Shown in pieces: positions 1,923 through 57,740 of a DNA stretch of 64,000 bases (the stretch's first letter is position 1; every line of letters starts with the position of its first letter). The translations under genes and the position numbers were made by a program. The DNA comes from a virus: IMG/VR virus record IMGVR_UViG_3300020195_000027, positions 1-64,000 of that record. One strand, 5' to 3'. Below the pieces are notes generated by a model that was not told the DNA's origin, did not search any database, and worked only from the letters and a program-made list of their open reading frames with translations.

Positions 1923-1993
1923 TGGAAAACAAATGAGCAAAAACAAGTATAAAAACTTTGTGAATCCCGCCAATGCCCAAAAGGAGCTTGTTA

Positions 1994-4900
1994 GTGTCAG
2001 ATAATTTATTTCAACGGATTTTTGGCAATAGTCGTGAAATTAAAAAACTAGAGACAGAACTTAAATCTTTGCGCGGTGAGATGGAAGAAAATTCGATTGA
2101 TTCATATATTGAGCAAATTAGCGCATACGACAAAAGCACTGATGATTCTGGATTTCCTGTAAGTAATAATTACAACTACCACAGCGCAATAGAGCAGGAT
2201 ATAGCCAAAGTTACCCTACATAGACTATATGTGTCTGAGGGCTGGATGTATATAGCTGTCACGGCAATAGCAAAGACCATCGCGTCATTGCCATTCGTGT
2301 TAGAAAAACAAGTTGTCACGACTGAGTATGTTGACGCGTCAAATCCAGACGCGGGAACCATAAGAGCTGACTCATGGGTTGACGCTAATGGTGAGCCTGA
2401 GCATGAAATTTTTCAATATCCAAACTCCACAAGCACAGCAATTGAATTTTACATGATGATCATAATTGACCTGTTAAGTACGGGAGAGGCGTTCATATAT
2501 ATTGACCGCGGACCAGACGCAGCGGAAGTTAAAAACGCAAAAAAAATCCGACTAAAACAAAATCAAAACGGAGTTAAGGGACTTTACAGGATGAACTCTT
2601 CGGCAATTGAGCCGATAGTTGAGCCTGGAGAACTTCACATCCAAGGATACGCCGCCAATACTGCGGGTGGATATTTCAAGTTCGAGACTGAAAACATTAT
2701 CCACATAAGATTACCAAATCCCGTTGATCCAACGAGGGGCTTGTCTCCAATTGTGCCAGTAATGAAAAACATATTGCTTGATCGGTACACAACAGAACAC
2801 ATGATCAGGTTTTATAAGCAAGGCGCACGACTCGGCGGCGCAATTGAAACCGATAAGAAGCTTTCTAAAGACCAGATCACCAGACTGCAACGATCATTTG
2901 AGCAGGACTTCACAGGCCGCCAAAACCATCACAGGACGCTCATTCTTCCAGAGGGCATGAAGTATCGGACCATCGAACAAAACCCCGGTGAAACGTCTCT
3001 AATTGAGTTTAACAAGCAAAATAGAGAGCCAGTGTTATCAGCTTATGGACTTCCCCCGATCAAGGCCGGAATATTAGACGGGGCATCATTCGCCAATGCG
3101 CTAACTCAAGAGAAATCCTATTACCAAGATACTATTAAACCACTCTTAGAAATATTACAGCAATCCCTGAATCTATCAGAGAACCTAATCGCAGCAGACA
3201 GAAAAATCAGAATCAGATTCGACATGTCTGGGGTCGAAGCACTACAAGAAAACGAAACAGAAAAATCCTCAACAGCAGCGTCAAAACTTTCTTCTGGAAT
3301 GACAATCAATGAAGTTCGAAGAGAGGTGTGGGGCCTACCCCCGGTTGATGGTGGCGACCGACTTCATCCGTCCCTATCGGCTCCAGAACCTCCTCCCATG
3401 CTTCCAATGCCACCACCTCCTGACACGTCGGGTAAAGGGATAGGCGTAAGCAGTTCCAAAGAAATAATGGACATAGTTAAGGCATTTATCAAGGGTGACA
3501 TTACGCTAGATGCGGCGGTGATGATTCTTGGACAAGCTTGCGGCATTGACCAAGCGGCTGCATATTCTATGTTGGGCCACAAAGAAAAAATTAACATTCC
3601 ACAGAACACTACTCCATCGGACGTTGTGCCAACTACGGACACATTCGAGGCTAGGGTTGCACAGTTGATTTCAATCATGGTTCAAGATGGGGTTGAGGTT
3701 GCGGTAGCTACTAGGGCAGCAATTGAGCGCGCTATACTTGAGGGATTTGTCCCATCGGCTCCTATTGAAACCGTTGGAGACGACGGGGATAAAGACGGGG
3801 AATGGAATCCAGTTGCCGTTGGCGATAACGTGGTTAAGCCTCCAAGGCTTCCATCTTATGATGATGAGGATGATTCAGATTTAAAACAATCCGAGATCCC
3901 AGAACGATATGCGCCAATTAACTTTGAGCCAAGCGACGAAATATCCAAGGAAGCAAGCCAAGGGCTAACTTGGGCTGGTGAGTATTCATTGGGAACAGAA
4001 TCCCAAAAAGCCAGGGCCACGAAACTAAAAGATAAAGCAATGATGACTCCACAATCCATTAAGACAATGGCTTCTTTCTTTTCTCGCAATGATGAGAACA
4101 GAGGATATGAGGAGGATGACAAGCCAAAACCAGGCGAAATTTTATGGAAACTGTATGGCGGGGATTCGGGTCAAGCGTGGGCTAATGAAACCTACGAGTC
4201 CATGCTGGTAATAGATGACGAGGAAATCAAAAGTCTTAAGACCGAGATCCCGTACACAAAAGAGTTTCTTGATACATATAGAAAAGGTCTAACCGAGGAA
4301 AATATTAAGGACATACTTGAACTACGAGAGGAAGAGGTTGTTTCTTTCTTTGAGAGAGTGTCCAAGCTATTCCTAGACCAAGCAAGAAAACACTTTAGAC
4401 TTAAAGGTGGCAAATACATAATCAAAGCCGAAGAGAGTCCTTTTGATGCGGAAAAAATCAATAAGTTTATTGAAGAGGAAGCCAAGAGAAATCCAATCGC
4501 ATTAAGACGGGCGCATGATCTTGGATATGATAACACATTAGAAAAATATCCAATAGATATTGACGAAAAGAAAACAACGGCAGCTTTGAAGAATTTAGCC
4601 AGATTAAGCATCCTCTCTGTTGTGGCGACTACAGAAGACGACGTTACCCGAATGATATTTTTAGGAACATCAGAAGGCGACTCCGCAGGAAAGATGAGAG
4701 AAAGACTTACCGAATATTTTCAGGGAAGCAAAACCCTTTCAAGAATCCAAACAATAGTAAGAACAGAATCATTAATGTCGGTGTCGTTAGGGCAGGACTT
4801 AAAAACACAATCACTTAAAAAAGAATACCCAGAATTGGCGACCAAACTTAGAAAGGTTTGGATTACCGCTCAGGATGAAAGAGTCAGAGGAAATCCTGGT

Positions 4901-6946
4901 GGAATATATCCCGACTCAGAATTTAACCATTTCGTTTTAGACGGCGTTGTCATTGACGAAACAAAGAGATTCCCAAGTGGCTTAAGGTATCCAAGAGATC
5001 CTGGTGGAAAAGCTGGTAATATTATTAACTGCTTTCTTCCTGGCACTGAGGTCTCAGGAATATTTATAGCAGGGGTCAAATCTGATTACACTGGACCTGC
5101 CATCGAGATAAAGACCGAGTCTGGAAGGAAACTTAGGGTCACGACCAATCACAAAATACTTACCAAAAGAGGTTGGCTTGCCGCCAAAGATATTAATGGA
5201 TTTGATGAGGTTATTTCTTACAAAACCCCAATCGACTCCGCTCTTGTGGTAGGAGAGATCAACAAAGATAATAAACCATCCCTGGTCGAGAATGTATTTA
5301 AGTCTCTTCTTATAGATGGGGAATCTTTGCGTAGGGATTTGAGAGCCAATGATCTCAATGGCGATTCTGAGTTTATCAATGGAAGCGTCAATGTTGTAAT
5401 TTCCAATAGCCTTTTGTTCAGTGACGGTAAATCCGTTGTTCGTCAAAAAATTAATGATACTATCCTCAAACAAAAACTTATGAGTCTTTCTAATTTGTCT
5501 GGTTTTAGCTCTAGCAATTTTAGTGGAGACAAGATCGACCTGCCCGCGCCTAGCGTTCCAGGCAGAAGAGCATTGTTGAATGACTCTCTTTCTATCGTGT
5601 TTGATTCTGGACCACTTCAAGGACTCGGATTCAGAAGAACCTCGCTGTTGGAATCCAAGTTTATTGAAGTGTCGGACGATAGAAATCCTGCTGATCCCGT
5701 ATTTATTCGAGAGTTCGTTAACAGAGAATCCGATTTTATGTTCTTCGATAAGGTCATTGAAATTAATCTTTTTGACTATTGCGGCCATGTGTACGATCTC
5801 CAATCTCTAAGTGGTTGTTTAATGTCTGATGGCGTATTAACGCATAATTGTCGATGCACACATCTTGTTTTCGTATCAGAGGATGAGGATGACGTATTGG
5901 ATAGTCTAGGAAGATCACCAGCTAAAGGTGGTCCAGGAAGCGGTTGCAGGGGTCCAAGCTGCGGAAGACCTCGCGGATCGGGAAGCGGGGATAAAATAGA
6001 AGAGGTATTGGAAGCCGTTGGCGCACCAAATCCCAAGGGTGGATCATCACAAGCGGCGTGGCAGTTATGCGATCCGGCTTGTCGCTACACAGAAAAAAGA
6101 GCAGCACTACACAATCAAACTGTAGCCAGAACATTAAGAGATGGAAAAAAGGGAAATCCACCAATAGCTATATTAACGGCTGGTGGCGGTGGGGCTGGTA
6201 AATCCACAACCATGCAATTAGTTCTTACACAATTTCCTCAAAAATTTGTACATTTGGATTCAGACAAATTCAAAAAAGAATTGCCAGAATATCGTGCGTT
6301 GACAAAGGCGAAGAATCCCAAGGCTGCTTCATTTGTTCACGAAGAGTCCAGCGACCTAGTTGCTAAGGCGTTTAAAGAATCAATTACAAAAAACAAAAAC
6401 CTAATTTATGATTCTACCTTCTCTAATCCAGATAAGGCGACTAACATAATAACCAGACTAAAAAGCGAAGGATATAAAGTTCACCTTGTTTATACTGATG
6501 TGCCAGCTGCCACGGCAATTGAACGGGCGGCTGGTAGAGCAAATAGAAGCGGTCGGTCTGTTCCTTTGGACGTGCTTAAAAAAGCTCACGCTGGAGCTAT
6601 CCTCACGCTTAATAAGGTTAACTCTTTACCAGATACCGTTACGGTTTTTTCCAACATTGGAAAGACACCTAAAATTGCGTATCAAAGACTTGGTCCATCC
6701 GAGACAGTTATCAATAATCTACTTCTAAACGAAATGAAAGTTAGGGGCCACTCAATCAAAGCTCTTGGAAACAATGAGGATGTATTCGAGATCGATCCTT
6801 TATTCATGGAGTTTATGAATACTTGGTATGAAACCGAAGTCCAAGAGGATGACGACATACTTGATGTTTATGACGAGGGTGTGGACATTGACCAGTATCC
6901 AGAGGCAAAAGAAAACGCCGAATCTGGTGAAAAAGGAGAAATTTAA
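1994..6946 (+). CDS. Portal-MuF-zeta toxin fusion interrupted by an intein
   Basis: The likely start is GTG 1994, seven bases after AAGGAG; an in-frame ATG lies at 1973, and residue numbers below count from that ATG (1657 codons). Residues about 20-480 are an HK97-type portal (FYKQGARLGGAIE, then LSAYGLPPIKAGILDGASF), the dodecameric DNA-entry ring. About 480-830 is an acidic linker. About 850-1300 is a MuF/SPP1 gp7 minor head domain (IVRTESLMS, VWITAQDERVR, then IIN/CRCT). An intein occupies 1020-1292. A low-complexity GPGSGCRG hinge leads to a zeta-toxin kinase at about 1395-1590 with Walker A GGGGAGKST (near 1404), DSDKFKKELPEY, HEESS and DSTF. Zeta toxins phosphorylate UDP-N-acetylglucosamine; MuF proteins are known carriers of polymorphic toxin domains. 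No antitoxin gene was recognised nearby. Having portal, MuF and toxin in one chain is unusual; a sequencing fusion is not suggested, as the frame is intact. Confidence 0.88.
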   Translation: MSDNLFQRIFGNSREIKKLETELKSLRGEMEENSIDSYIEQISAYDKSTDDSGFPVSNNYNYHSAIEQDIAKVTLHRLYVSEGWMYIAVTAIAKTIASLPFVLEKQVVTTEYVDASNPDAGTIRADSWVDANGEPEHEIFQYPNSTSTAIEFYMMIIIDLLSTGEAFIYIDRGPDAAEVKNAKKIRLKQNQNGVKGLYRMNSSAIEPIVEPGELHIQGYAANTAGGYFKFETENIIHIRLPNPVDPTRGLSPIVPVMKNILLDRYTTEHMIRFYKQGARLGGAIETDKKLSKDQITRLQRSFEQDFTGRQNHHRTLILPEGMKYRTIEQNPGETSLIEFNKQNREPVLSAYGLPPIKAGILDGASFANALTQEKSYYQDTIKPLLEILQQSLNLSENLIAADRKIRIRFDMSGVEALQENETEKSSTAASKLSSGMTINEVRREVWGLPPVDGGDRLHPSLSAPEPPPMLPMPPPPDTSGKGIGVSSSKEIMDIVKAFIKGDITLDAAVMILGQACGIDQAAAYSMLGHKEKINIPQNTTPSDVVPTTDTFEARVAQLISIMVQDGVEVAVATRAAIERAILEGFVPSAPIETVGDDGDKDGEWNPVAVGDNVVKPPRLPSYDDEDDSDLKQSEIPERYAPINFEPSDEISKEASQGLTWAGEYSLGTESQKARATKLKDKAMMTPQSIKTMASFFSRNDENRGYEEDDKPKPGEILWKLYGGDSGQAWANETYESMLVIDDEEIKSLKTEIPYTKEFLDTYRKGLTEENIKDILELREEEVVSFFERVSKLFLDQARKHFRLKGGKYIIKAEESPFDAEKINKFIEEEAKRNPIALRRAHDLGYDNTLEKYPIDIDEKKTTAALKNLARLSILSVVATTEDDVTRMIFLGTSEGDSAGKMRERLTEYFQGSKTLSRIQTIVRTESLMSVSLGQDLKTQSLKKEYPELATKLRKVWITAQDERVRGNPGGIYPDSEFNHFVLDGVVIDETKRFPSGLRYPRDPGGKAGNIINCFLPGTEVSGIFIAGVKSDYTGPAIEIKTESGRKLRVTTNHKILTKRGWLAAKDINGFDEVISYKTPIDSALVVGEINKDNKPSLVENVFKSLLIDGESLRRDLRANDLNGDSEFINGSVNVVISNSLLFSDGKSVVRQKINDTILKQKLMSLSNLSGFSSSNFSGDKIDLPAPSVPGRRALLNDSLSIVFDSGPLQGLGFRRTSLLESKFIEVSDDRNPADPVFIREFVNRESDFMFFDKVIEINLFDYCGHVYDLQSLSGCLMSDGVLTHNCRCTHLVFVSEDEDDVLDSLGRSPAKGGPGSGCRGPSCGRPRGSGSGDKIEEVLEAVGAPNPKGGSSQAAWQLCDPACRYTEKRAALHNQTVARTLRDGKKGNPPIAILTAGGGGAGKSTTMQLVLTQFPQKFVHLDSDKFKKELPEYRALTKAKNPKAASFVHEESSDLVAKAFKESITKNKNLIYDSTFSNPDKATNIITRLKSEGYKVHLVYTDVPAATAIERAAGRANRSGRSVPLDVLKKAHAGAILTLNKVNSLPDTVTVFSNIGKTPKIAYQRLGPSETVINNLLLNEMKVRGHSIKALGNNEDVFEIDPLFMEFMNTWYETEVQEDDDILDVYDEGVDIDQYPEAKENAESGEKGEI
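5030..5848 (+). mobile_element. Hint-domain intein inserted in the MuF NCRC motif
   Basis: Splicing blocks are visible in frame with the host gene: N-terminal Cys1020 in CFLPGTEV (block A), RVTTNHKILTKRGW (block B, TxxH), FDKVIEINLFDYCGHVYDLQ (block F) and GVLTHN before Cys1293 (block G with terminal His-Asn). Excision rejoins IIN to CRCT, restoring the conserved NCRC motif of MuF proteins. Length is 273 residues. The sense-strand middle (about 1085-1245) has no LAGLIDADG or HNH motif and is Ser/Leu/Asn-rich. This is what one expects if the other strand is the one under selection. Confidence 0.93.
5054..5788 (-). CDS. Antisense homing endonuclease-like gene nested in the intein
   Basis: ATG 5788 is preceded by GGAG with nine bases between; the frame could also be entered at TTG 5803. 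The 244-residue product begins with a HTH/NUMOD-like DNA-binding module (GFSVNELSNKYGISRISIVR, residues 20-39, then KKLG-like spacing and an ARRG motif near 79-82). A Vsr-like or PD-(D/E)XK nuclease core follows: E108 in FEDSII, D134 in GNYNID, E145 in RIAIEIIG, and LKYILDQGWFIIFVDL. This resembles the Vsr-related homing nucleases known from phage introns and split inteins. The gene lies entirely within the intein on the opposite strand; its start sits in the block F codons and its stop within block A. It would make intein-less NCRC alleles targets for homing (inference). Expression against the late operon would need its own minus-strand promoter, which I could not define. Confidence 0.85.
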   Translation of the reverse strand: MAAIVKKINFNDLIEEHKIGFSVNELSNKYGISRISIVRHFNKLGFQQRGSSESESLKWSRIKHDRKRVIQQCSSAWNARRGQVDLVSTKIARAKTRQIRKTHKFLFEDSIINFLTNNGFTVTEQKAIGNYNIDASIDKLRIAIEIIGSQIPTQRFPIYKKRLKYILDQGWFIIFVDLSYHKSGVDWGFVRNNLIKSINIFGGKPTSFGKYFVIGRDPKFPSRLGLYLDGRSSVIRFDPCYKYS

Positions 6947-20302: not shown

Positions 20303-23300
20303 GTGGGAGACGTTCGAGTCAAGATTGAAGCCGAAGACGATTTAAGCCCAGCGGTTTTGAAAGCCATTGAGTCGCTTAAAAGATTTGAGGCATCCACTAA
20401 AAGCGCATTTGGCAATGTCACAAAAGCGACCGAAAGTGCTGCAAAATCTACACAACAATTAAACGAAAAAATCGAAACCACCCAAGGGTTGTCCGTGGGA
20501 TTAAAAAAACTAGGAAACGAAGCCAAGTCTGTAGAGACCGATTTCGCTTTTTTTGGTGGTGCATCCGTTGGTCTATTCGCTCTGGAAAAGACATTTGGAA
20601 TTTTAACTATAGCGGTACAAAAAACCTCAGCGGCGGCTGCTGCATTTTCAAACAGAGCGGCTGCGATTTCTCCAGATATTGGTAAAGTTGGCGCAGCGTT
20701 AAGGGGCACATCCTTAGATACTGCGAGCATGATGCGGTTCATGGATGTGGCAAAACAAAGCCTAAATGGATTTGCCGCCTCTGCTTCCCAAGCTATAGCT
20801 CAAGGACTTACGCCTCTTAAAAACGCATTGGGATCAACCGCGGGCGCATTAAAAGCGATAAACACAGTTACCTTACAGGCTACCGCAATGGCAGTGTCTT
20901 TAGGCAAGGTCGCGGTTCAATCTGTTACGTCTTTTGCTAAATACGAAACCGGACTGGCTGGATTAGTATCAAAATTAGGACTAGCATCTGCGGCGACTGG
21001 AATTTTGGCAATCCATATGCTGAAATCAGATTCTATTATCGGAAAACTTGCAGGGGTGGGATTGCTTGCCCTAACCGCAGCTTTGGGTGGAGCTATATTT
21101 CTAATCCAACATGCTTTGGTTGCTGTCGGGGGGCTGATAGTTGCTTTGGGTACTGGCCTTGTAAACGCAGCAACAGCCCAAATACAATCATTTGAAAAAG
21201 CAGAGATTAAAACTTTAGCGTTTACTCAGACAATCGTAGCGATGGCGGCGAGCGCGGAAGAGGGGTCCAACAGTTTACAAAAATGGAACACATTCCTTGG
21301 TGAAATGTCGTCAAAGACCGGAGAAACCCAAGCAAATCTTCAGGTAATCACAGCGGAATTTATAGGAGCCACAAAAGCTCTTGGGTTTACCGATGATGTT
21401 CAAAAAAGATTAATCAGTTCGACTGTTGACGTTGCTTCAAAATTCAAATTGAATCTTGTGGACGCTGCTCAACAGGTTTTAGGGGTTATCAATGGGAACT
21501 CACAGAGTTTTCTAGCCCTAAACCTTCACATGAAGGATTCTGAAGTCGGCGCAAGCAAAGCTGGCGGTGCATTTAAGGACACTTTTTCAAAAATGGAGGA
21601 TGGTAATAAAACTGCCGTTCGTACCAATGTACTCTTCGAGAAATTAGGCAAGACAGGAACCACAGGATTTGCCATAGCTGCGGCTGATACCTATTCCAGA
21701 TCACTAGAAATTCAAAAAAATGCTCAAGACCAACTTAACTCAGAGTTGGGTAGAGGGGCCAGGTTAATCGAAGGGCAAGTAATCTTTGGATTAGCGGAGG
21801 CGACTAGGTGGTTTACGGAAATGACCAAGCCTTTGTTGCCACTTGTGGGGTTCTTAGAGGCATTATTTGGTAGATTATTACAGGGTGTTGGAACAATCGC
21901 TCAACACGCAGTTCAGATTTCGTTATTGATAGCCGTATATAAAACACTTCAAACAGTTTTGGGGGGAAAGTTCTTTCAAGAATTAATCACAAAACAAATA
22001 CCGGTGATGAACAAAAGTTTCGTTCAGCTTGCGTCTCAATTGGGGGCGACTAATGTCAGCTTTAAATCATTAGGAGACGTTGGAAAATCATCACTTCAAA
22101 TAGTCAAAGCTCAAGCCGTGGGAGCAATAGGTGGTTTAACGGGAGTCAAGGTTGCTGGTCAGTCTGCAATGAGGGCAATGATGGCGATAACCTCGGCTGC
22201 GGCTCCTTGGCTTGCAATAGCGGCAGCGGTGTTTATTTTGGTTAAAGCCGTTCAGTTTATTGAAGAGGAAACAGGAATATTCTCAGAAATTTGGGGTCAA
22301 CTTGTTGGTGTCTTCAATGAAACGTCGGCGGCACTGTCTTTTTTAGGCCCGATCTTTCAAAGAATAGCAAATTTATTTCAAGGAGCATTGTCTGGATCTA
22401 TAAGAATTGTTGCCGGTTTATTAACCTCCCTAGCTTCTGGCTTTATTGTTTTTGCACTAACCGCCGCCAAAGCTACAAACGCATTAGCTGGACTCGCAGG
22501 CAAAACATTAATTGCAAAGGAAACCATTCAGTCATTAGAGCAAGCGTATTTAAAAACAAACGAAGCCGCTGGAAAATTTGCGGCACAGGGTATAGCAAAT
22601 GTTGGGAGTGGTATTGCAGGAACATTCAAAACTGCCGATAGGGCATTGGCTTCAAACCAAGATGCTTGGAAAAACTCCACCGCTGCCGTAACCAAAGCAG
22701 TAGAAGAGCAAAAGAAAAAAGTAGATGAGCTTAAAAAGGTTTTGGGAGCCTTCGGAGGAGTTGGGGGACAAGCAGAATTAACAGCACAACTTCAAATGGT
22801 TCAAATAACCGAAGACGAGAAAAGAAAAATCATTGTTGATGGTCAAAAATCTGGAACTATTGATGCAAAATTAGCTCAAGACGGTTTACTCGCAATAAGA
22901 AGAGAATCAATCACAAAACAATTAGAACTAGAGGCTGCGTTTGCACAGCAAAAAGCTGATATATTAGCAAAGGATGTTCAATCTGGGGGCGATTCTCCCG
23001 AAACAGCACTACAATCTAAGTTTGCTGCTCAAGCTGCGGCTGAAAGCGCAAATCAAGCAAGGGCAGCGCAATTCAGAGGCCAAGAAATAACCGCACAGCA
23101 AGCTCATGACCAAGCATTAACAGCACTGGCTGCTCAGGGAATAACTCAGAGGACAGTGATTGAGCAATCATTAATGCAGCAAAGAGCCGACCTATTGGGA
23201 ATATCAGATGCCGGACTCCAGGAAAAATTAGCTCAAGAGGAAGAGAGATTTCAGTTAGAGCTTGAGCAAACAAAGATGCGATCAGAGCAGATTTTACTGA

Positions 23301-24058
23301 CAGATGCCGAAAAGAAAACGGCTATAGAAGAGGCTGAGTTAAATCATCAGGCCAACATGGAAACTATTAAGCAGGAAAATCTTGAAAAGGACATACAAAG
23401 AAACGAGACGTTAGGAAATAATAACGCCGCTTTTATGAAAAGATTAGAATTGTCTCAACGTAAACACGGTGCGGTAATGGGAACTTTAAAAGCAGCTCAG
23501 GCTTCCGCAGAATTTGGAGCATTACAACAAGGGTTAGGCGCAGCATCAGAATTGATGGCATCAGAAAATAAGACGCAGTTCAAAATTGGGAAGGCTGCCG
23601 CGACTAGCCAAGCCCTAATAAATACCTTTTTAGCTGCAACAGGAGCTTTTGCGTCATTATCTAGTATACCAATTGTTGGCCCATTTTTGGCAATTGCCGC
23701 CGCTGCGGCGATAACTGCAGCCGGTATGCTTCGAGTCAAACAAATTAAAAATACGCCACTTCCTGGCGGTCAGGCCGATGATGGTATGACTGAGATTCCA
23801 AAAAGTCTCACCGGAAGATCGTTTATTATGGATGGTGGAGAACGCGTTATCAAATCCAGACAAAATAAAGACTTAACAGAAGCATTGTCAAAAATTAATT
23901 CTGGGGATTCTAATAAAACAAATAACATAAGCATTAATGTTCAGGGTAATGCTACCCAAGACACGGTGCGAGACATAAGAGAAACTATTATTGACGTGAT
24001 ACGTCAAGAGTCTGAGAGAGGAAAGCCGGTAATTTCTTCTCGTGGGGTGACTGGATGA
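20303..24058 (+). CDS. Tape measure protein
   Basis: At 1251 residues this is the second-longest gene. It starts at GTG one base after the chaperone extension's stop. The N-terminus is helical, about residues 200-330 and 625-650 are hydrophobic (GVGLLALTAALGGAIFLIQH, then AAPWLAIAAAVFILVKAV), 800-1100 are Gln/Ala/Glu-rich helices, and a further hydrophobic stretch lies near 1110-1145. This is the typical tape measure pattern, setting tail length and helping DNA entry. No lytic transglycosylase motif was seen. Confidence 0.9.
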   Translation: MGDVRVKIEAEDDLSPAVLKAIESLKRFEASTKSAFGNVTKATESAAKSTQQLNEKIETTQGLSVGLKKLGNEAKSVETDFAFFGGASVGLFALEKTFGILTIAVQKTSAAAAAFSNRAAAISPDIGKVGAALRGTSLDTASMMRFMDVAKQSLNGFAASASQAIAQGLTPLKNALGSTAGALKAINTVTLQATAMAVSLGKVAVQSVTSFAKYETGLAGLVSKLGLASAATGILAIHMLKSDSIIGKLAGVGLLALTAALGGAIFLIQHALVAVGGLIVALGTGLVNAATAQIQSFEKAEIKTLAFTQTIVAMAASAEEGSNSLQKWNTFLGEMSSKTGETQANLQVITAEFIGATKALGFTDDVQKRLISSTVDVASKFKLNLVDAAQQVLGVINGNSQSFLALNLHMKDSEVGASKAGGAFKDTFSKMEDGNKTAVRTNVLFEKLGKTGTTGFAIAAADTYSRSLEIQKNAQDQLNSELGRGARLIEGQVIFGLAEATRWFTEMTKPLLPLVGFLEALFGRLLQGVGTIAQHAVQISLLIAVYKTLQTVLGGKFFQELITKQIPVMNKSFVQLASQLGATNVSFKSLGDVGKSSLQIVKAQAVGAIGGLTGVKVAGQSAMRAMMAITSAAAPWLAIAAAVFILVKAVQFIEEETGIFSEIWGQLVGVFNETSAALSFLGPIFQRIANLFQGALSGSIRIVAGLLTSLASGFIVFALTAAKATNALAGLAGKTLIAKETIQSLEQAYLKTNEAAGKFAAQGIANVGSGIAGTFKTADRALASNQDAWKNSTAAVTKAVEEQKKKVDELKKVLGAFGGVGGQAELTAQLQMVQITEDEKRKIIVDGQKSGTIDAKLAQDGLLAIRRESITKQLELEAAFAQQKADILAKDVQSGGDSPETALQSKFAAQAAAESANQARAAQFRGQEITAQQAHDQALTALAAQGITQRTVIEQSLMQQRADLLGISDAGLQEKLAQEEERFQLELEQTKMRSEQILLTDAEKKTAIEEAELNHQANMETIKQENLEKDIQRNETLGNNNAAFMKRLELSQRKHGAVMGTLKAAQASAEFGALQQGLGAASELMASENKTQFKIGKAAATSQALINTFLAATGAFASLSSIPIVGPFLAIAAAAAITAAGMLRVKQIKNTPLPGGQADDGMTEIPKSLTGRSFIMDGGERVIKSRQNKDLTEALSKINSGDSNKTNNISINVQGNATQDTVRDIRETIIDVIRQESERGKPVISSRGVTG

Positions 24059-24884: not shown

Positions 24885-27428
24885 ATGAGCCAGGCCATAT
24901 TTTTTAACCCATTCGTTTCGTCTGCACCAATCCTAGTAGGGGCTGGTAACGGCACACTTACGGTTAATAGGTTAACACACTTCACCGTAACCCAGACATA
25001 TACCGCGGTGTGTACCGCCATTGCGCCATTCGTCGTGTTTCAGGTTATCGGATCTCTTGACGGTCCCGTAGGTGTTGCTCAAGTAGGGCAGGAATTTTCA
25101 GACGAAGACTTAAAAATATTCTTTACGATTAATCAGGGGCCAACGCTTTTCGATATTGGGGACACGTTCACACTATCTGTTACGCAAGGCACCGATGTAG
25201 AGCAGTTAAACATAGATTTATACGATGAGTTACCACAAAAGAATTTCGGTGACGGTGTAATTGGGGATTTCAAGGGCGATCACAACGTGAGATTTGAGAA
25301 TCTCAACAACGAAGCCGAAAGAACCATACAAGATTTGACGTTTACCTCTCTATTAGACAATGAAGAGGGTAACGGAATCCTTATCAGGTACGCAAATGCT
25401 CCTGGAAACGTCAACGCTACGTTAATTTTGCAAGACCTAACCTACGAGGCGGTCGCAACAGGGACTCCTGGAAACGCCATTACGGTTGAATACGAGGATT
25501 ATGATCCAGCGGTCAACGCGACGGTAACAATTCAAGACTTGTTGTATGCTGCTAGCAACGCGGGAGCAGATGGAAACAATATTTCTATCGAATACACTAC
25601 GGGAGCAACGGCTGGACTTGAAGTTGTAGTCGTAACGGTTGACGCTATATCGATTCAAATTGAAGCAGGAGTATCAACTGCCGATCAAATAAAAACAGCA
25701 ATTCAAACAACTCCCGCAGCCATCGCTTTAGTAACGCCATTCACAGCGGGAACAGGATTAGAAACTCAAACGGCTCCAGAGGGTCCTACATTTTTGTCAG
25801 GTGGCCTTGATGCGGTAGGCGATGCTGGGAATGAAGTCGTAACGGTAGTTTTAGATGCGATAAAAGTAAAACTTCAAACAGGAGTATCAGCAGCAACACA
25901 AGTAAAGGCTGCGCTTGACGCAAGTGTTCCTGCTTCGGCCATAGTTACTGCCACAATAAGCGGAGTTGGGCCTAATGCTCAAACCGCTCCAGTAGTTCCA
26001 ACTAATTTAGCCGGCGGTGTAACGGGCAGCGGCGGTCCGGGGTTTGAAATAGTCACTGTTAATGGGACTTACATATTGGTTGAGTTCCAATCATTAGCAT
26101 CTAACGCAACACAAATAAAAACAGCAATTGCCGCTAACGTAGATGCTGCGGCAATTGTAGCTATAGACATTAGTGGGACGGCTTCAGATCCACAGTCCGC
26201 TCCAGCGATTAGATTCCTTAGAAGTGGATCACCAGTAGATTATTTTTCGTTTAACAAACGAGAGTTAAGCGTTCCTCTAGAGTTTTACGAAGGTAACGCC
26301 AATTTATTAGGCAACAAAGGGATATTTCAAAGCGATATTTGGGGATTTGGAAACACTACTCTTCGGGGAATTGTTAAACTCGACGACATTAGGTCGGTAG
26401 ATAACATTTCGGGCGATCCGATATATAATCTTCAAAAAGAAACAAACATATTAATACAGTTCAAATCACAGCTTCAGATCACTTTAGACGAAATAAACCC
26501 CAAGAGGGTTAAACTATCGGGTGCTGACATCGAGTTACTTGATGGCAGGATCCTGAGACAAGAGATTTCAAAAAAGATCATGAAGTTCGAGGGTGCCGTC
26601 ATTGATTTGGAGACAGGTGATGTTTTCGAGTCGGACGGCATAACTCCATACCCCGATAGCTTCTTGCCATCTGCAATTCCAATTGCAAATTATGGCTGGT
26701 ATTCAATTGGTCTAATTCCAGACATTGCTGATTCCGAAAACAGAATGACCGTAAAGGTCAGGGTTGAGCCGGCAATCGGATTTAACGTAACAAGTGAGTC
26801 GGCTCCAAGAGCTAACTTTGTTGGATCCAAACCAATCGGTGAGGTTTTCGTACAGTCTGATGGTGTAACAATCGAAAACTTACTAGAAGAGAACATTTCT
26901 CAAATGGGATTTGGTGCTGGTGGTGGCGGTGGGGTAGGTTATCAAGAAATCCCGACGGGTTTGGTAAACGGACTCAATGATACTTTCGCATTAACAAAAG
27001 TTCCAAGCGATAATAATTCGGTTCTATTGTTTATAGACTTTGTAGCAGTAGACAGGGCTGCTTATAATCTTTTAAATCAAGTAATAACAATCACTGATCC
27101 AACTTGGGTTCCCCAAATTGGGCAGCAAATGTATGCCTTCTATCTTATTGATGGATCTGGTGGCGGTGGCGGGCCAGCTCCTACGGGAACAGAGTATGTA
27201 GAATATAGAACATTAACGGCTCCAGAGGCGACGGCAAAACAATTAGTATTAGCTGCCACTCCCGCGTCTATTTTAAAGGTCAAGGTCGATATAATCGGCG
27301 GGACTTCTCAGGAGTTTGGAATTGATTTTACGGTAATTGGTAATGTTTTAGGTTGGAATGGGTTGGGAATGGATTTACAAGGAATTGCATTAACAGGTGA
27401 TAAACTAAGAGTAACGTACTTTAACTAA
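24885..27428 (+). CDS. Tail tip protein with array of QDLTY-type domains
   Basis: The 847-residue protein contains an N-terminal segment with LTHFTVTQTYTAVCTA, then about three to four tandem or partial copies of the shared domain at about residues 145-445. A middle region (SFNKRELSVPLEFYEG, SDIWGFGNTTLRGIV) follows, then glycine-rich linkers around a QEIPTGLVNGLND module of the family repeated in the next genes. It is likely a tail-tip or fibre-attachment protein. Confidence 0.65.
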   Translation: MSQAIFFNPFVSSAPILVGAGNGTLTVNRLTHFTVTQTYTAVCTAIAPFVVFQVIGSLDGPVGVAQVGQEFSDEDLKIFFTINQGPTLFDIGDTFTLSVTQGTDVEQLNIDLYDELPQKNFGDGVIGDFKGDHNVRFENLNNEAERTIQDLTFTSLLDNEEGNGILIRYANAPGNVNATLILQDLTYEAVATGTPGNAITVEYEDYDPAVNATVTIQDLLYAASNAGADGNNISIEYTTGATAGLEVVVVTVDAISIQIEAGVSTADQIKTAIQTTPAAIALVTPFTAGTGLETQTAPEGPTFLSGGLDAVGDAGNEVVTVVLDAIKVKLQTGVSAATQVKAALDASVPASAIVTATISGVGPNAQTAPVVPTNLAGGVTGSGGPGFEIVTVNGTYILVEFQSLASNATQIKTAIAANVDAAAIVAIDISGTASDPQSAPAIRFLRSGSPVDYFSFNKRELSVPLEFYEGNANLLGNKGIFQSDIWGFGNTTLRGIVKLDDIRSVDNISGDPIYNLQKETNILIQFKSQLQITLDEINPKRVKLSGADIELLDGRILRQEISKKIMKFEGAVIDLETGDVFESDGITPYPDSFLPSAIPIANYGWYSIGLIPDIADSENRMTVKVRVEPAIGFNVTSESAPRANFVGSKPIGEVFVQSDGVTIENLLEENISQMGFGAGGGGGVGYQEIPTGLVNGLNDTFALTKVPSDNNSVLLFIDFVAVDRAAYNLLNQVITITDPTWVPQIGQQMYAFYLIDGSGGGGGPAPTGTEYVEYRTLTAPEATAKQLVLAATPASILKVKVDIIGGTSQEFGIDFTVIGNVLGWNGLGMDLQGIALTGDKLRVTYFN
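25321..26222 (+). repeat. QDLTY-type domain array
   Basis: Successive starts RTIQDLTFTS, LILQDLTYEA and VTIQDLLYAA, then repeated VSTADQIKTAI/VSAATQVKAAL and LSGG/LAGG ends, show stacked and partly nested copies. Some copies are truncated, as expected for unequal recombination. Confidence 0.75.
26938..27180 (+). repeat. QEVPSG-type domain copy 1
   Basis: Encodes QEIPTGLVNGLNDTFALTKV and a conserved AAYNLLNQVITITD strand, between Gly-rich linkers. The same module recurs at 28385-28591 and three times at 28770-29427. Confidence 0.7.
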
Positions 27429-37708: not shown

Positions 37709-37863
37709 TAGAAAAGTTTGAAGAATTTATCTTTGATTTAACTTGGGATCTTAAGTTTAAGATAAGGTTTTCTCATTGCGAGCAAGAAAAAGAATATTCC
37801 ATGAAAATGTTAGGGTTTATAGAACAATTATTACAAAAGCATGGTCTTGAGGAGTTGCTGTGA
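37705..37863 (+). CDS. 52-codon small gene
   Basis: ATG 37705 overlaps the upstream stop (ATGA) and the TGA overlaps the next start (GTGA at 37860). It encodes an acidic helical peptide (EKFEEFIFDLTWDLKFK, then GFIEQLLQKHGLEELL). Start-stop overlaps on both sides make translation likely. Function is unknown. Confidence 0.6.
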   Translation: MIEKFEEFIFDLTWDLKFKIRFSHCEQEKEYSMKMLGFIEQLLQKHGLEELL

Positions 37864-40800
37864 GTTGTGGGAATGGCGGCAGGACGCACTGGATTTATTC
37901 TGGAAATCAAGTTGGATACTTAAACTTTGTTGGACTAATGAATTTCGTGGCTGGTGGTCCAGATGGTTCTGGAATATCGGCGGGAAAATTAGTTTCACAA
38001 TTTATTAGACCTCCGATTTCACGGGAACCGTGGAACGATTCAGACGCTCAACTTAATCAGCAATTATTAGACGCTTCTTTTCCTTTTATTCAATTAAATT
38101 GGATTGCAAATATTGACATTGGAAATGGTGTCCTCTTTAGGGTTTCAGATAAAAATGTTTACGTTGAAGATTCCGATGGAACTCCTAGATTTTATGAGGC
38201 TAGGGCTGACAGTGGTCCAACATTATTGCTAACCAATGGCGAATGGCTTGCGCCTAGTTTTGAAATAGGTGATTTGAGTCTTAAATTAAATAATCGAGAT
38301 GGCTTCTTTAATAAATATCTTGCCCAGGGTGATGAATACAATCAGTGGATGGGCGGGAGAATTGATGTCTTAGTGGGCTTTGGTGAAAAAATATCAAACT
38401 ACTTCAATGTTTTCACCGGCTTCATAGCTTCCAAAAAAGGAATCACAGTAACAGATAAGGACATTAGCATAAGGGCTTATGACCTATTTGAAAATGATGA
38501 GGTGCCAATACCTGCAACAGTTTTCGATAATATAAGCTATCCAGATATTCAGGAAGGGGCTTCAGGAAAGTCAGTTCCTCTTGTTTATGGGGACTGGAGC
38601 GAAGAGGTTGGGGACTTTGGAGAAATTCCAGGATTTTGCACTAACGCTTTTGCGGACATTCCCGCAAACTTCATATTTCAAATATCCCAAAATCAATTAT
38701 TTGAGATCGGGGATGTTTATTTGCACCGAGGGGACAGAGTTGCTGGGTCTATTGAGGGTCCAATTCTTTTAGACGACACTCAGTTTACAAAGAGTCCTGA
38801 ATTTGGGCAAATAGTAATCCCTGCAAACGCTCCAGCACTTACAGATTTCGCTGTGGTAATAGATAACTCACAAGCGGGGTCTGGATCTGGATTAAATGAA
38901 ATAACTTCAAACACAGCGGAATTAAACTTTATCATTAAGGGTGTTAAGGCTAACGATAAAGTTTTCAAAACAAAAACATCAGAGGTTGCTGTTGTATTTT
39001 CAGTGGCATCAAACCAATTAATTTTAACTGGTGGAATAACTTTTGATGAAAATGACGAGTATTCCATAAGAACAAAAAACTATTCTTACTTTAAGGGCGA
39101 CAAGCTAAGCGTGTTTTGCAAAGGAAAGAATGTAAGGAACATTTCACTTAATCGCTTGTCAGATGCGGGTCTTGGAGCTTCTGTTCCAAGGGGTCTAACG
39201 GTTGGTCTTGATGGAACATATTGGTTCTGTGATAATGACTCCCAAAAAATATACCAAGTTACGTTTAAAAACGAATTAGTTAAACAAATCAACTACTTAG
39301 ACATATCTCCTGAGATAACTTCTATCTCAGGATTCAGTATTCAAACAGACAATACCCTTTGGATATTCGACGATCTGCAAAGCAAAATATATCGATGGTT
39401 AATTGATGATCAGGCTCTGGGCCTTTCTTTTTCTACGGTTGATATTTTTGGCTTGGGAACCGCTCTAACAAGTGGCTCTGGTCTTACGGTTGATACTGGA
39501 AATTTAATTTATATCGTTGATAATTTCAGCGGTGAGTTTTACGTAATAAATCCCTTTGCCAATCCTGCTCCCACGCTTGTTTATCAGTGGAACAGAAGCG
39601 CATTTGAGGCTTCGGCAGTAGACATTTATGACCTTTCGGTTGATGTGAATCTTCAGGAGGTATTGGTAGCGGACAGGAATAATCAAAAGTATTATAGAAT
39701 AGACGCTACTAATGGCTCATTTATAACAGAATATGCGTTTTCATTAATAGCAGATAACGCCACTTTCATAGTTGGAATAAGTGCCGCGCAGGACGGGACA
39801 GTGTTTCTGCTAAACAGAGAAAACAATACGCTTTATAATTTCAACGAAGAGCCGGATGCTTCAAACAATGCTGGATTCATTTGCAGAGATTTGGTTCAGG
39901 CATATACTGGCAAGGTTTCGAGCGACTTTGACCTTAACTTCAATCAAACCAGTAGAGAAGATTTATCTAAATACAAATGCAGAGTCTACATAGACAGTAA
40001 AACAAATGTAATAACTGCGGTAAATAAAATCCTACAGCAATATAATACTGTTCTTTACATCAAGTTCACAAGATATGCCCTTTTTCACATTACGTTTGAT
40101 AACTTCAGAGAAGACGGGGGGTTAATAAACGAGGGTGACATACAAGAAAACTCATTCAAAGCCAATAAAGAGTACGGTCAATATTTCAATTCTGCGTTTG
40201 GAGATTATGCCGATCTTCCTTTTAGTCAAGGAAAAACAAGATCAGACACATACGTTTCACCAAAGGGCATAGAGTTCGCAGGAAAAGAAATATCTAAGCG
40301 AATAGATATGCCCAACGTGTATTTGAGAAACGATGTTGATAAGCTAATGCCTTTATTTGTAAGATTAGCCGCTCCAGAGCCGGAATTTTTGACATTTACC
40401 ACTTCGTGGAGATTCATATTTACCCAACTAACTCAATTTTTCAGAATGAACTTCTACGAAATGCCAGATTGTGAGACTGGATTAAAAAAGGGTGGTAGAA
40501 GGTTTGAAAAAATACCCTGCTTCATAAGAGAATTAAGTTTTGATTTAACTTCATTCACAATTCAAGTAAAGGCATGGTCTTTGGGCACTACACAGTTTGG
40601 AACATTCATTCCTAATGGTCCTTTTGCTGGGGGCGAAAGTGATAAAATAGTTTTAACCAATCTTGGAACCGTAGGATATATTGCGCCTGTCGGATATATT
40701 ACTGCCGCTACTGTCAATTCAATAACAATCGCAGATGTTGGTGGAGATAACGCAGAAAACAGAACCGCTCCCGTTGTGGGTAAGGCCTGGCTTCCTGGAT

Positions 40801-41144
40801 ACAGGGTTGCCATAATAGATGCCATCACTCAGGCGGCTGTTGAACACCCAACAATTAGCTCGGTGGTTGGTCAGGTAATAACTTTTACCGAAAACTTAGC
40901 GGCTCCTGTTGTGCCAAGCGTTTTAAACTCGGCGGGATTCGTCGTTGGCGGGTACTATGTTAAGTATGCAAATTACGAGTTTACTTCAGCAGATCAAAAA
41001 GATGATTACGCTTATTTTGGCCGTCCCGAAGTCGGTTACCCAACGTCGGGTTCTCAAGAGGTGGAGGAGCAACGTGCTGGACTTCACTCGTTTGAAGATG
41101 ATCGGCAACCGTACGTCCTCTTCCCCGCAGGATTTGTCCCGTGA
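37860..41144 (+). CDS. Tail tip hub protein with inserted beta-propeller
   Basis: The 1094-residue protein starts at GTG 37860. Residues 1-430 resemble siphovirus tail hubs (EIGDLSLKLNNRDGFF, FTGFIASKKGI, VPLVYGDW). About 443-665 hold five NHL-like blades (GLTVGLDGTYWFCDN, FSIQTDNTLWIFDD, GLTVDTGNLIYIVDN, SVDVNLQEVLVADRN, ISAAQDGTVFLLNRE). About 670-920 resume the hub (KYKCRVYIDSKTNVI, ELSFDLTSFTIQVKAWSLG), and a Gly/Ala-rich beta C-terminus follows. It likely closes the tail tube and anchors fibres. Confidence 0.68.
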   Translation: MSCGNGGRTHWIYSGNQVGYLNFVGLMNFVAGGPDGSGISAGKLVSQFIRPPISREPWNDSDAQLNQQLLDASFPFIQLNWIANIDIGNGVLFRVSDKNVYVEDSDGTPRFYEARADSGPTLLLTNGEWLAPSFEIGDLSLKLNNRDGFFNKYLAQGDEYNQWMGGRIDVLVGFGEKISNYFNVFTGFIASKKGITVTDKDISIRAYDLFENDEVPIPATVFDNISYPDIQEGASGKSVPLVYGDWSEEVGDFGEIPGFCTNAFADIPANFIFQISQNQLFEIGDVYLHRGDRVAGSIEGPILLDDTQFTKSPEFGQIVIPANAPALTDFAVVIDNSQAGSGSGLNEITSNTAELNFIIKGVKANDKVFKTKTSEVAVVFSVASNQLILTGGITFDENDEYSIRTKNYSYFKGDKLSVFCKGKNVRNISLNRLSDAGLGASVPRGLTVGLDGTYWFCDNDSQKIYQVTFKNELVKQINYLDISPEITSISGFSIQTDNTLWIFDDLQSKIYRWLIDDQALGLSFSTVDIFGLGTALTSGSGLTVDTGNLIYIVDNFSGEFYVINPFANPAPTLVYQWNRSAFEASAVDIYDLSVDVNLQEVLVADRNNQKYYRIDATNGSFITEYAFSLIADNATFIVGISAAQDGTVFLLNRENNTLYNFNEEPDASNNAGFICRDLVQAYTGKVSSDFDLNFNQTSREDLSKYKCRVYIDSKTNVITAVNKILQQYNTVLYIKFTRYALFHITFDNFREDGGLINEGDIQENSFKANKEYGQYFNSAFGDYADLPFSQGKTRSDTYVSPKGIEFAGKEISKRIDMPNVYLRNDVDKLMPLFVRLAAPEPEFLTFTTSWRFIFTQLTQFFRMNFYEMPDCETGLKKGGRRFEKIPCFIRELSFDLTSFTIQVKAWSLGTTQFGTFIPNGPFAGGESDKIVLTNLGTVGYIAPVGYITAATVNSITIADVGGDNAENRTAPVVGKAWLPGYRVAIIDAITQAAVEHPTISSVVGQVITFTENLAAPVVPSVLNSAGFVVGGYYVKYANYEFTSADQKDDYAYFGRPEVGYPTSGSQEVEEQRAGLHSFEDDRQPYVLFPAGFVP

Positions 41145-48748: not shown

Positions 48749-49107
48749 TGTTTCAAGAGCAAATGTATTATAAGAAGAACGATAAATATGCCATACATAT
48801 TTCAAACGATAATGACAACAATGCGGTATTTCAGGTTGTTAGATTTTGTGAGCAAAGGCTTTTGAAAGATAGTGAAAAATACCACACAAAGATTGTTCTG
48901 GTGTCGGTGTGGGAAAAAAAAGTGCCAACAGAAATGCAAAATAAAAATCCAAAGAATCCCGCTGACTTCAAAAGGGAGTTTCAATCAACTTTAAAAGAAG
49001 CCAATATTGAATTTGAAAAACACAACATTAAACGCACGATCATGGTTGGTGCTTTAACTGACTCTTGGTCACAGTGCAAGGGTTTAAATGAGTCAAAGTG
49101 TATTTGA
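48748..49107 (+). CDS. Hypothetical protein upstream of terL
   Basis: GTG 48748 overlaps the previous TAG. The 119-residue product is alpha/beta (DKYAIHISNDNDNNAVFQVV, KIVLVSVWEKKVP). It overlaps terL by 20 bases. The place is where TerS often lies, but no HTH is seen. Confidence 0.55.
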   Translation: MFQEQMYYKKNDKYAIHISNDNDNNAVFQVVRFCEQRLLKDSEKYHTKIVLVSVWEKKVPTEMQNKNPKNPADFKREFQSTLKEANIEFEKHNIKRTIMVGALTDSWSQCKGLNESKCI

Positions 49108-50479
49108 AATAAACTATCAGAGGCACACTGGTCAACAAGAGGTTATTAGCGAGCTTGTAAGAAGAAAAAAAGAGTGGGACATTGCCACTATTGTTTGTTC
49201 TCGCGGCTGGGGTAAAACTCTTTTTGGAACGTGTGATATCCTGGTTCCCACCATGCTCAGTTTAAAAAACTCGCAGTCTATGTGGGTTGCTCCAACATAT
49301 AAACATTGCGGAGCTATGTTCGACGACGTGTGGAAAGGCATAGACGAGAATACAGGGAAAAGGTTTATTCCTGATACTTGTGAAAATACGGGAATAAAAT
49401 TCTTTGAACATAAAAAGGGTGTTTATGAGCTTCACTTATTTAACGGCTCAAAAGTTTTTGCGAGATCCACACAAAATCCAGACAACATTGTCGCCAAGGG
49501 ATTCAATCTAATTATAATAGATGAGGCTTCCCTCATTAATAAAGATATATTTTATCACCAGATTCTAGGAACCGCTCGACGAAAAGGAATCAAGATCATC
49601 ATAATCACTACTCCAAGGGGTAAGAATTGGGTTTATGAGCTTTACCTAGCGGGACAAGAAAAAGGCAACGGGACCTATATTTCGTTCAGGCAGCCGTGGT
49701 GGAAGAGGCCAGATTATCCAGAGTTCCTAAAAAAGATAATGCTGGATATTCCAGAGCATATTAGAAAACAAGAATTTGAGGCTGAGTTCATTGATGACGG
49801 GTCGGGGGCATTTACCAATTTTTCTAATATCTTTAAGGGAGATTCAATTGATTTTCCAGGACAAAATCAACACTGGGAGCGTCCTTTAAGCCAAAAGGAA
49901 TTGGACGAGGAAACATTTGTCCTGTCGGTGGACTTTGCAAAATCTGTGGATTATACGGTAATAGTCGGGATGACGCAAAACACAAGAAGAATGTTTTATT
50001 ATAAGAGGTTCAATAAAATGGACTACAAGCTGGTGTTGGAAGATTTGAGAAGAATAGCCAAAAAATACGAAGCCGATATAATATTCGATGCAACGGGAGT
50101 GGGCGCAGGATTGCAGGATTTCCTGAGTGGCGACTTCAATGTCCATCCATTTAAATTCACCAACGAATCAAAAAATGAGATAATAAATAAAATGATATTA
50201 GCGTTTCAATATGTAGAAATAGAGCTTCCAAACATCACCACGATGCGGAATGAGTTTGAACTATTCACCTACACTATGAGCAAAACAGGAAAAATACTAT
50301 ATTCTGCTCCAGACGGAAAGCACGACGACACTGTGATAGCTGTGGCTATGGCGAACTGGTATTGTTTAGAAAACGCTGGTGCTGGTCAGGTTAGGGCTGT
50401 TGAGGATTATTTTAGCGTAATTAATGATATATATTCACCAAGATCTAAACTTCAGCAGTTAATGGATGAGGATGACTAG
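49088..50479 (+). CDS. terL: Terminase large subunit
   Basis: The 463-residue protein has Walker A CSRGWGKT (37-44), Walker B LIIIDE (141-146), a coupling motif ITTPRG, and the RNase H-fold nuclease acids Asp282 (SVDFAKSVDYT), Asp334 (FDATGVGAG) and Asp413/414 (KHDDTVIAVA). It pumps and cuts DNA at the portal. It closes the late operon, far from the TerS-like gene at 1143. Confidence 0.93.
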   Translation: MSQSVFEINYQRHTGQQEVISELVRRKKEWDIATIVCSRGWGKTLFGTCDILVPTMLSLKNSQSMWVAPTYKHCGAMFDDVWKGIDENTGKRFIPDTCENTGIKFFEHKKGVYELHLFNGSKVFARSTQNPDNIVAKGFNLIIIDEASLINKDIFYHQILGTARRKGIKIIIITTPRGKNWVYELYLAGQEKGNGTYISFRQPWWKRPDYPEFLKKIMLDIPEHIRKQEFEAEFIDDGSGAFTNFSNIFKGDSIDFPGQNQHWERPLSQKELDEETFVLSVDFAKSVDYTVIVGMTQNTRRMFYYKRFNKMDYKLVLEDLRRIAKKYEADIIFDATGVGAGLQDFLSGDFNVHPFKFTNESKNEIINKMILAFQYVEIELPNITTMRNEFELFTYTMSKTGKILYSAPDGKHDDTVIAVAMANWYCLENAGAGQVRAVEDYFSVINDIYSPRSKLQQLMDEDD

Positions 50480-56426: not shown

Positions 56427-57740
56427 TTACTCTCCTCTAGGTTTTGGTGAAGCAATCGGACATTCTGCTCCCTCCGATGAAGAGGCAGCAAGCCGAAACA
56501 GAAGGCGAGGGAGAAGTAGGTCACGCGCTTGCGCTAGAGTGGTAGATTCGATTGAGTTAGCGCGCATCATTTGAAACATCGGCTTTACCAAAGTACCGAA
56601 GGCCGTCGCGACAGCTTGAGTTGGCTTTGCAAATGAAAAGCGGCTTAGGCAACTCTCTGGCACTCTCTGCCTGCCAGAGGAACCGGACATGTTGGTCATT
56701 AAGTGGGTACGGAAACTTTCTTCCCTGGCTAGTAGATACGATGCCTCAAGTGGGAGTGGATCTCTTGATCTGAGGACGATGAACTCAGTAGAGCCCCAGC
56801 CGACCTGGCTATCATCCAAGTAATCGACGAAAGCTGTTTTGCCGTTTTCGAGGCATGGAGTGATGCGCGCTATCAACGTATCACCATTTGAGAAGCGGGA
56901 ACCAGACGTAAACTCTCTGAGTCTGCCTCCAGAGACGCTCATCGAACCCATAGGCAGATCGGCCATCTCGGTATATGGAAATTCTGCGCCTTTGGTCAAA
57001 CTATACCTCGGGTTTACCTCGAATAGTTCGCTGACGACTCCAGCACTCCACCCTTTCGGAATCTCGCCCATCTCCGACTTCTCGAAACTGTCGGGGAAGA
57101 GCGCGGTGGCGTCATCCATGCCGAAGGGTTTCTTGACTTGTCGCTTGGCGTGGACCGGGTCGAAGTCGATGAACCAGGACTTGAAGATCGCGCGGGCCAT
57201 CTGCTCCAGCGTCTCGTTCATCTTGCGGTTGAGTTCGATCTTGTCGTCGAGCAGCTTCAGTGCGCGAGCTACTCTCTCTTGGTCTTTCAATGTTGGAAGT
57301 ACGAGAGGCATTTTCTTAGCAGACTCAACATTAAAGTGTTGCTGTACGGCGCCCACTAGGTGACTGGCCACATGATGTGCCCCAGTGCAGTTAATAAAAT
57401 AGGCTAACCAATAGGGGTTTACTTTTTTCCCAGGCCTTATAACCACCAAATCAGAACAGTTTGCATCGTTGAGCCATTCCGGGATTACAACTGCAGCACC
57501 TGGCTTTCCAGTTCTTACAACAACTACATCACCAGGCTTAAGCTGCGATTTTTTGAGTTTTTGATGGAACTCTTGGCTAATGTACTTGAGGCCATTCTTC
57601 TTTATGTTTAGCGGTTCAATATTTAGAGAGCGAAGGAACGGAACCCCAGTGTCGACATATTCACTTGCCATTGAACCAACGAAACCAACTGTGATCTCAT
57701 CGACAACTTCGCCAAGAGTGGTGCTTTTTTCACTGGTCAC
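56427..57740 (-). CDS. hsdS: Type I R-M specificity subunit HsdS
   Basis: The 437-residue protein has two target-recognition domains separated by the conserved helix ([20 protein letters not shown], near residue 170) and followed by the second ([14 protein letters not shown], near 405). It starts at GTG overlapping the hsdM stop. After LLPRLL the usual SGEL ending is replaced by an atypical Ala/Ser tail, suggesting a 3' change at the cassette end. Confidence 0.88.

What the first reader, a model, noticed from the sequence alone, without database searches (positions are those of the whole stretch)
1994..6946. Single polypeptide joins portal, MuF and zeta toxin
Portal and MuF are normally separate genes, and toxin domains are known at the end of MuF proteins. 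Here all three sit in one frame. A toxin attached to the portal could be loaded in the head and delivered with DNA, or matured by cleavage. The GPGSGCRG-type hinge before the kinase domain is a likely processing site. The antitoxin is not visible.
Basis: partly seen in the sequence, partly recalled or inferred. Interest (0 to 1): 0.75.

Follow-up and report, generated by a model that had tools for sequence, protein, structure and literature searches.

The report
Phage intein with antisense homing endonuclease
The giant phage head protein is interrupted by a self-splicing intein, and the opposite DNA strand of that same stretch encodes a second protein, the predicted DNA-cutting enzyme that spreads the intein; this two-strands-one-sequence design recurs in well over a hundred different phage inteins.

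Summary
Residues 1020-1292 (nt 5030-5848) are an intein splitting the MuF NIIN|CRC motif, so the mature protein is predicted to form by protein splicing. Nested wholly inside the intein, on the opposite strand, is a 244-aa gene (5788-5054): own Shine-Dalgarno and ATG, helix-turn-helix, and a nuclease domain whose closest solved relatives are the homing endonuclease I-Bth0305I and Vsr. This is not a chance ORF. 127 non-redundant phage inteins share the layout: 0 antisense stop codons against 945 expected; substitutions in the intein core fall mainly on the antisense wobble position in 19 of 19 informative pairs (extein: the reverse in 19 of 19); start codon and Shine-Dalgarno are kept by synonymous codon choice; a free-standing homologue sits beside an intein-less MuF gene. 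Seven relatives carry the same portal-MuF fusion with an empty intein site and no kinase. Portal/MuF/zeta fusions are already described; the antisense-nested endonuclease appears new, although one unread 2025 preprint on actinobacteriophage inteins could overlap. Splicing, cleavage and homing are inferred, not shown.

The parts
1973..6946 (+). ORF: portal - MuF(N) - intein - MuF(C) - zeta-like kinase, 1657 aa
2249..3322 (+). portal domain, residues 93-450
   Evidence: Pfam PF04860 E 2.3e-55
4391..5029 (+). MuF / head morphogenesis domain up to the splice site NIIN
   Evidence: PHROG 2468 residues 807-1020; relatives L266 and L267 hit Pfam Phage_Mu_F over cut-off, ending at NCRC
5030..5848 (+). 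intein, 273 aa, Cys1 ... His-Asn, +1 Cys
   Evidence: Pfam PF14890 above cut-off; boundaries; empty-site relatives; AF2 Hint halves pLDDT >90
5141..5164 (+). intein block B, TTNHKILT
   Evidence: sequence; alignments
5786..5848 (+). intein blocks F/G, HVYDLQSLSGCLMSDGVLTHN; its reverse complement carries the antisense SD and ATG
5054..5788 (-). antisense gene, 244 aa: HTH + Vsr/I-Bth0305I-like homing endonuclease, wholly inside the intein
5798..5803 (-). Shine-Dalgarno TTGGAG for the antisense gene
   Evidence: family codon test
5660..5761 (-). helix-turn-helix, antisense residues 10-43
   Evidence: AF2 helices; HTH Pfam families across members
5258..5476 (-). nuclease domain, antisense residues 105-177
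   Evidence: 3r3p Z 10.7, Vsr Z 10.6; 3r3p E 1.4e-6 by profile
5354..5398 (-). catalytic-type motif YNID...IAIE; its sense mirror is DLNGD..VNVV (family DFHGDG..VEIV)
   Evidence: invariant Y131 D134 E145 in A1
5849..5866 (+). C-extein CRCTHL completing the MuF motif
5930..5956 (+). GPGSGCRGP linker between MuF and kinase
6149..6664 (+). zeta-toxin-like kinase domain, residues 1393-1564
   Evidence: Pfam PF06414 E 1.8e-36; PezT 2p5t E 1e-9

Best explanation
The head gene of this phage carries a mobile intein whose two functions are written on opposite strands of the same DNA. Read with the head gene, the DNA gives a splicing (Hint) domain whose long middle has no predicted fold; it should cut itself out and join MuF at NIIN|CRC. 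Read in reverse, from its own Shine-Dalgarno and ATG, it gives a separate HTH + Vsr-type nuclease. By the logic of homing, that nuclease cuts intein-less MuF genes near the CRC codons of a co-infecting or resident phage, and repair copies the intein in. Shown here by computation: both reading frames, their conservation, antisense selection, nuclease fold, empty sites. Inferred: antisense transcription, splicing, site-specific cleavage, homing. The zeta-like kinase is a separate C-terminal effector acquired by this phage on an ancestral portal-MuF fusion.
For: Antisense products align in Vibrio, Pseudomonas, Cronobacter, Gordonia, Salmonella, Mycobacterium, Haemophilus and Helicobacter phages, opposite a MuF intein. 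Of 185 loci analysed, 180 have intein N and C blocks on the strand opposite the endonuclease ORF, 127 non-redundant; in a set chosen by the sense splicing block alone, 80/80 have it. 0 of 5560 Leu/Ser codons are antisense stops vs 945 expected; this window alone 0 vs 19, p about 1e-10. Substitutions: core pos1 > pos3 in 19/19 informative pairs, extein the reverse 19/19; antisense identity .82 vs sense .71 in the core, sense higher in the splice blocks. Start: CAT/CAC (ATG/GTG) 90/7 vs 794/953 elsewhere; SD: Leu codon CTC 74/85 vs 24% elsewhere, spacing mostly 8-9. Antisense stop lies inside the intein in 118/125. Free-standing homologue L018 beside intein-less MuF, 161.7 bits vs 93-98 for synonymous shuffles. 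Nuclease fold: 3r3p, Vsr. Empty-site relatives.
Against: No transcript, protein or cleavage data. No convincing antisense promoter (sigma-70 consensus only). Most loci were gathered by antisense similarity, so the stop count is partly ascertained; the sense-selected set and the substitution phase are not. The window copy lacks the GGxWH His found in about half of the family, so this copy may be impaired. The window has no close relative, so its own substitution phase could not be measured.
Confidence: 0.9

Rival explanations
1. The antisense ORF is a shadow: the intein core is conserved as protein and the antisense frame is open by codon bias.
For: The frames share phase pos2:pos2, so sense conservation leaks into antisense; shuffled inteins still give 93-98 bits against L018.
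Against: Core substitutions are low at sense position 3 and high at position 1 (19/19 pairs), the reverse of the extein; stop, start and SD codon choice are synonymous for the sense protein; a free-standing gene of the family exists; the real profile scores 64 or more bits above shuffles; most of the sense core has no predicted fold.
Confidence: 0.02
2. The antisense protein is real but not a homing endonuclease, for example a phage regulator or a nuclease acting elsewhere.
For: No cleavage data; HTH is common in regulators; the window copy lacks the consensus WH.
Against: Nuclease fold closest to a homing endonuclease; gene confined to an intein, nearly always at one motif in MuF, with empty sites in relatives; the free-standing copy lies next to the same site.
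Confidence: 0.07
3. One reading: the main feature is a portal-MuF-toxin fusion matured by cleavage at the GPGSG hinge.
For: All three domains present with intact kinase motifs.
Against: Such fusions are described (PMC5512222) and the portal-MuF fusion is ancestral here; an intein lies in between.
Confidence: 0.1

Closest known systems
Inteins with an in-frame homing endonuclease (LAGLIDADG or HNH), e.g. TliVMA, PI-MtuI
   Same: Hint splicing blocks A, B, F, G; insertion at a conserved motif; endonuclease in the same DNA element
   Different: Here the endonuclease is a separate protein from the opposite strand, overlapping the splicing ORF almost end to end
Split inteins with Vsr/EDxHD endonucleases ('fractured genes', Dassa et al. 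2009; paper not readable here, from memory and its citation in PMC12350094)
   Same: Same endonuclease superfamily associated with inteins in phage-like genomes
   Different: There the endonuclease gene lies between the two halves of a split gene; here the intein is unsplit and the genes share the same bases
ShiLan element, hidden HNH in a phage methylase (PMC11855218)
   Same: Endonuclease in an alternative frame of an insertion that stays open in the host frame
   Different: ShiLan is described as out of frame ('third frame'), HNH, with no detectable splicing domain; here antisense, Vsr-type, in a recognisable intein
I-Bth0305I (3r3p) and Vsr (1cw0)
   Same: Fold and acidic positions of the nuclease domain
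   Different: Resolvase-type HTH in front; gene location
MuF polymorphic toxins and polyvalent proteins (PMC5576092, PMC5512222)
   Same: MuF with a C-terminal zeta-like kinase
   Different: Portal fused as well; interrupted by an intein

Membership tests
Intein | N-terminal Cys1/Ser1/Ala1 and block B TxxH | tested here: met
   Cys1, TTNH; Cys1 and His41 invariant in A8
Intein | C-terminal Asn followed by +1 Cys/Ser/Thr | tested here: met
   THN|C
Intein | Intein-free alleles with an intact motif | tested here: met
   seven relatives with uninterrupted (I/V)NCRC
Intein | Hint fold | tested here: met
Intein | Protein splicing in cells | not testable with these tools
   needs expression
EDxHD/Vsr-type homing endonuclease | Vsr-like nuclease fold | tested here: met
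   3r3p Z 10.7 (94 aligned, 2.4 A), 1cw0 Z 10.6 (114 aligned, 2.9 A); profile E 1.4e-6 to 3r3p
EDxHD/Vsr-type homing endonuclease | Conserved acidic catalytic residues | tested here: met
   Y131, D134, E145 invariant and E108 nearly so in A1; motif recognised by pattern in 115 of 127
EDxHD/Vsr-type homing endonuclease | His and Asp of the EDxHD motif | tested here: inconclusive
   WH in 67 of 127, absent in the window copy; Asp not assigned
EDxHD/Vsr-type homing endonuclease | Site-specific cleavage and homing | not testable with these tools
   needs assay
Overlapping antisense gene | Selection on the antisense frame | tested here: met
MuF polymorphic toxin | MuF domain plus C-terminal toxin domain | tested here: met
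MuF polymorphic toxin | Immunity/antitoxin gene | tested here: inconclusive
   epsilon antitoxin search without hit and without a positive control

The most novel reading that the evidence does not exclude
A widespread, previously unrecognised class of mobile element in which one stretch of DNA encodes a protein-splicing element on one strand and its homing endonuclease on the other; the conserved sense 'DFHGDG...VEIV' signature of these inteins is largely the mirror image of the nuclease active site. Antisense expression would free the endonuclease from the late timing of the head gene it invades.
Probability: 0.6. Interest if true: 0.92.

Novelty: new variant of a known kind. Interest (0 to 1): 0.85.

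Why it matters
Near-complete antisense overlap of two conserved, foldable proteins is very rare and often doubted; here the evidence is internal to each gene (stops, wobble position, start and Shine-Dalgarno codons) and repeats in 127 non-redundant inteins. It suggests that inteins now annotated as simple head-protein insertions, including those of common Salmonella Jerseyvirus phages, hide their endonuclease on the other strand, gives a natural model for two-strand coding, and makes testable how an element inside a late structural gene gets its nuclease expressed in time to home.

Tried and rejected
Direct relatives of the window: P0002 and the MuF half each found nothing in viral contigs by single-sequence patterns; relatives came by tblastn and subfamily alignments. 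Alignments A1 and A5 were too diverse to scan with. Antisense promoter scan: one weak match inside the gene, fewer than in shuffles. Chance ORF / shadow rejected; note that shuffled inteins still score against L018, so raw antisense similarity alone would not have been proof. The sense 'DFHGDG' motif was considered as an intein function of its own (AF2 gives residues about 80-125 good confidence), but antisense identity exceeds sense there (.88 vs .80); a joint role is not excluded. A second intein in the genome: none found. Epsilon antitoxin: no hit, but no power. Fold matches to mitoribosome and vWF A1 chains were set aside as not functionally informative.

Full report
Observation. The ORF 1973-6946 is continuous (1657 aa) and carries portal, MuF and zeta-kinase domains. 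The kinase keeps its Walker A and putative catalytic Asp and resembles PezT.

The intein. Residues 1020-1292 match Pfam Intein_splicing above its cut-off and have Cys1, TTNH, HN and +1 Cys. They split the MuF motif NIIN|CRC. Seven IMG/VR relatives found with the portal sequence all have portal and MuF in one ORF of about 880-1010 aa, an uninterrupted (I/V)NCRC, and neither intein nor kinase; two checked hit both Pfam portal and Phage_Mu_F. The portal-MuF fusion is thus ancestral in this lineage, and intein and kinase are additions.

The antisense gene. On the minus strand, 5788-5054, lies a 244-codon ORF wholly inside the intein. tblastn of its product hit 58 phage records at E up to 1, nearly all lying antisense in MuF genes, while the sense intein matched in the same genes. 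In the intein-bearing phage loci fetched with annotation (L002-L017, L019-L023), from proteobacterial, actinobacterial and Chloroflexota hosts, both strands are open in the same pos2:pos2 phase. Further scans brought the set to 185 loci: 180 have both intein blocks opposite the endonuclease ORF, four are partial (contig ends), one is free-standing. They reduce to 127 at 80% intein identity, mostly at the MuF CRC site. When loci were picked by the sense splicing block alone, 80 of 80 had the antisense gene.

Is it coding? (a) Stops: the antisense stop codons correspond to sense TTA, CTA and TCA. In the endonuclease stretch 0 of 5560 Leu+Ser codons are of this kind; local codon usage predicts 945; extein rate 16%. 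For the window alone 0 against 19 expected. (b) Wobble: in 20 independent pairs, core substitutions per site are .265/.078/.151 at sense positions 1/2/3 against .197/.132/.440 in the extein; every informative pair agrees (19/19 and 19/19). Antisense identity exceeds sense identity in the core (.82 vs .71), and the reverse holds in the splice blocks. (c) Start: the block-F His codon is CAT (ATG) or CAC (GTG) 90:7, against 794:953 elsewhere. (d) Shine-Dalgarno: the reverse complement of VYDLQ reads TTGGAG; the Leu codon is CTC in 74 of 85 against 24% elsewhere, giving GGAGG/GGAG/GAGG mostly 8-9 nt before the start. (e) The antisense stop falls within the intein in 118 of 125. (f) A free-standing homologue, L018 in Acinetobacter phage IME285, is convergent with an intein-less MuF gene ending in CKC; the family profile gives it 161.7 bits, synonymous shuffles 93-98; single-sequence hits 126 of 127 vs about 22. 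The residual score of the shuffles shows how far the sense core is itself dictated by the antisense gene.

What it encodes. The family profile finds I-Bth0305I (3r3p, E 1.4e-6) and an endonuclease-like protein 3hrl (E 4.9e-6), with resolvase-type HTHs; 11 of 20 members hit Pfam MTES_1575 and one Vsr. AlphaFold2: pLDDT 85, pTM .70; best structural matches I-Bth0305I (Z 10.7, 94 residues, 2.4 A) and Vsr (Z 10.6, 114 residues, 2.9 A). The sense intein model has confident Hint halves and a middle (136-221) without predicted fold; its matches are inteins. The conserved sense motif DFHGDG..VEIV is the mirror of the antisense YN.D...AVEV; identity is higher on the antisense side.

Mechanism (inferred). 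Splicing restores MuF; the antisense protein cuts empty MuF alleles; repair copies the intein. Antisense expression would let the nuclease be made independently of, and perhaps before, the late head gene. The window copy lacks the WH of about half of the family, so its activity is uncertain.

Novelty. No paper in the searched library describes it. The closest readable is ShiLan (PMC11855218), which cites Gosselin et al. 2025 (bioRxiv 10.1101/2025.01.02.630785, 'non-canonical architecture') in a sentence on overlapping reading frames in actinobacteriophages; that preprint could not be read and may cover part of this. One record, Salmonella phage PK1, lists an antisense hypothetical protein at this place (XRA40086.1). 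Zeta-MuF fusions are known.

Noticed in passing
56427-59329 (-): HsdM-type N6 DNA methylase of a type I restriction-modification system (57737-59329), with a possible HsdS next to it; unusual cargo for a phage record.
   Followed up: partly
51958-53274 (+) and 54094-55434 (-): Two N6_N4 DNA methylase genes on opposite strands.
   Followed up: partly
49088-50479 (+): Large terminase lies far from the portal at 1973, so the record is probably circularly permuted.
   Followed up: no
20303-24058, 24885-27428, 37860-41144 (+): Large proteins (1251, 847, 1094 aa) without any Pfam match at E 0.001.
   Followed up: no
L018:455-1345: Free-standing homologue of the antisense endonuclease, convergent with an intein-less MuF gene in Acinetobacter phages (3 records), a possible ancestral or derived state.
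   Followed up: yes
L019 (Rhodococcus phage REQ3): MuF intein appears to begin with Ala instead of Cys1, with a shorter antisense gene; possible different splicing class.
   Followed up: no
L008 (Sejanus), L017 (fEg-Eco06): Inteins of the same antisense type at two other sites within MuF genes, so the family seems to have changed target.
   Followed up: partly
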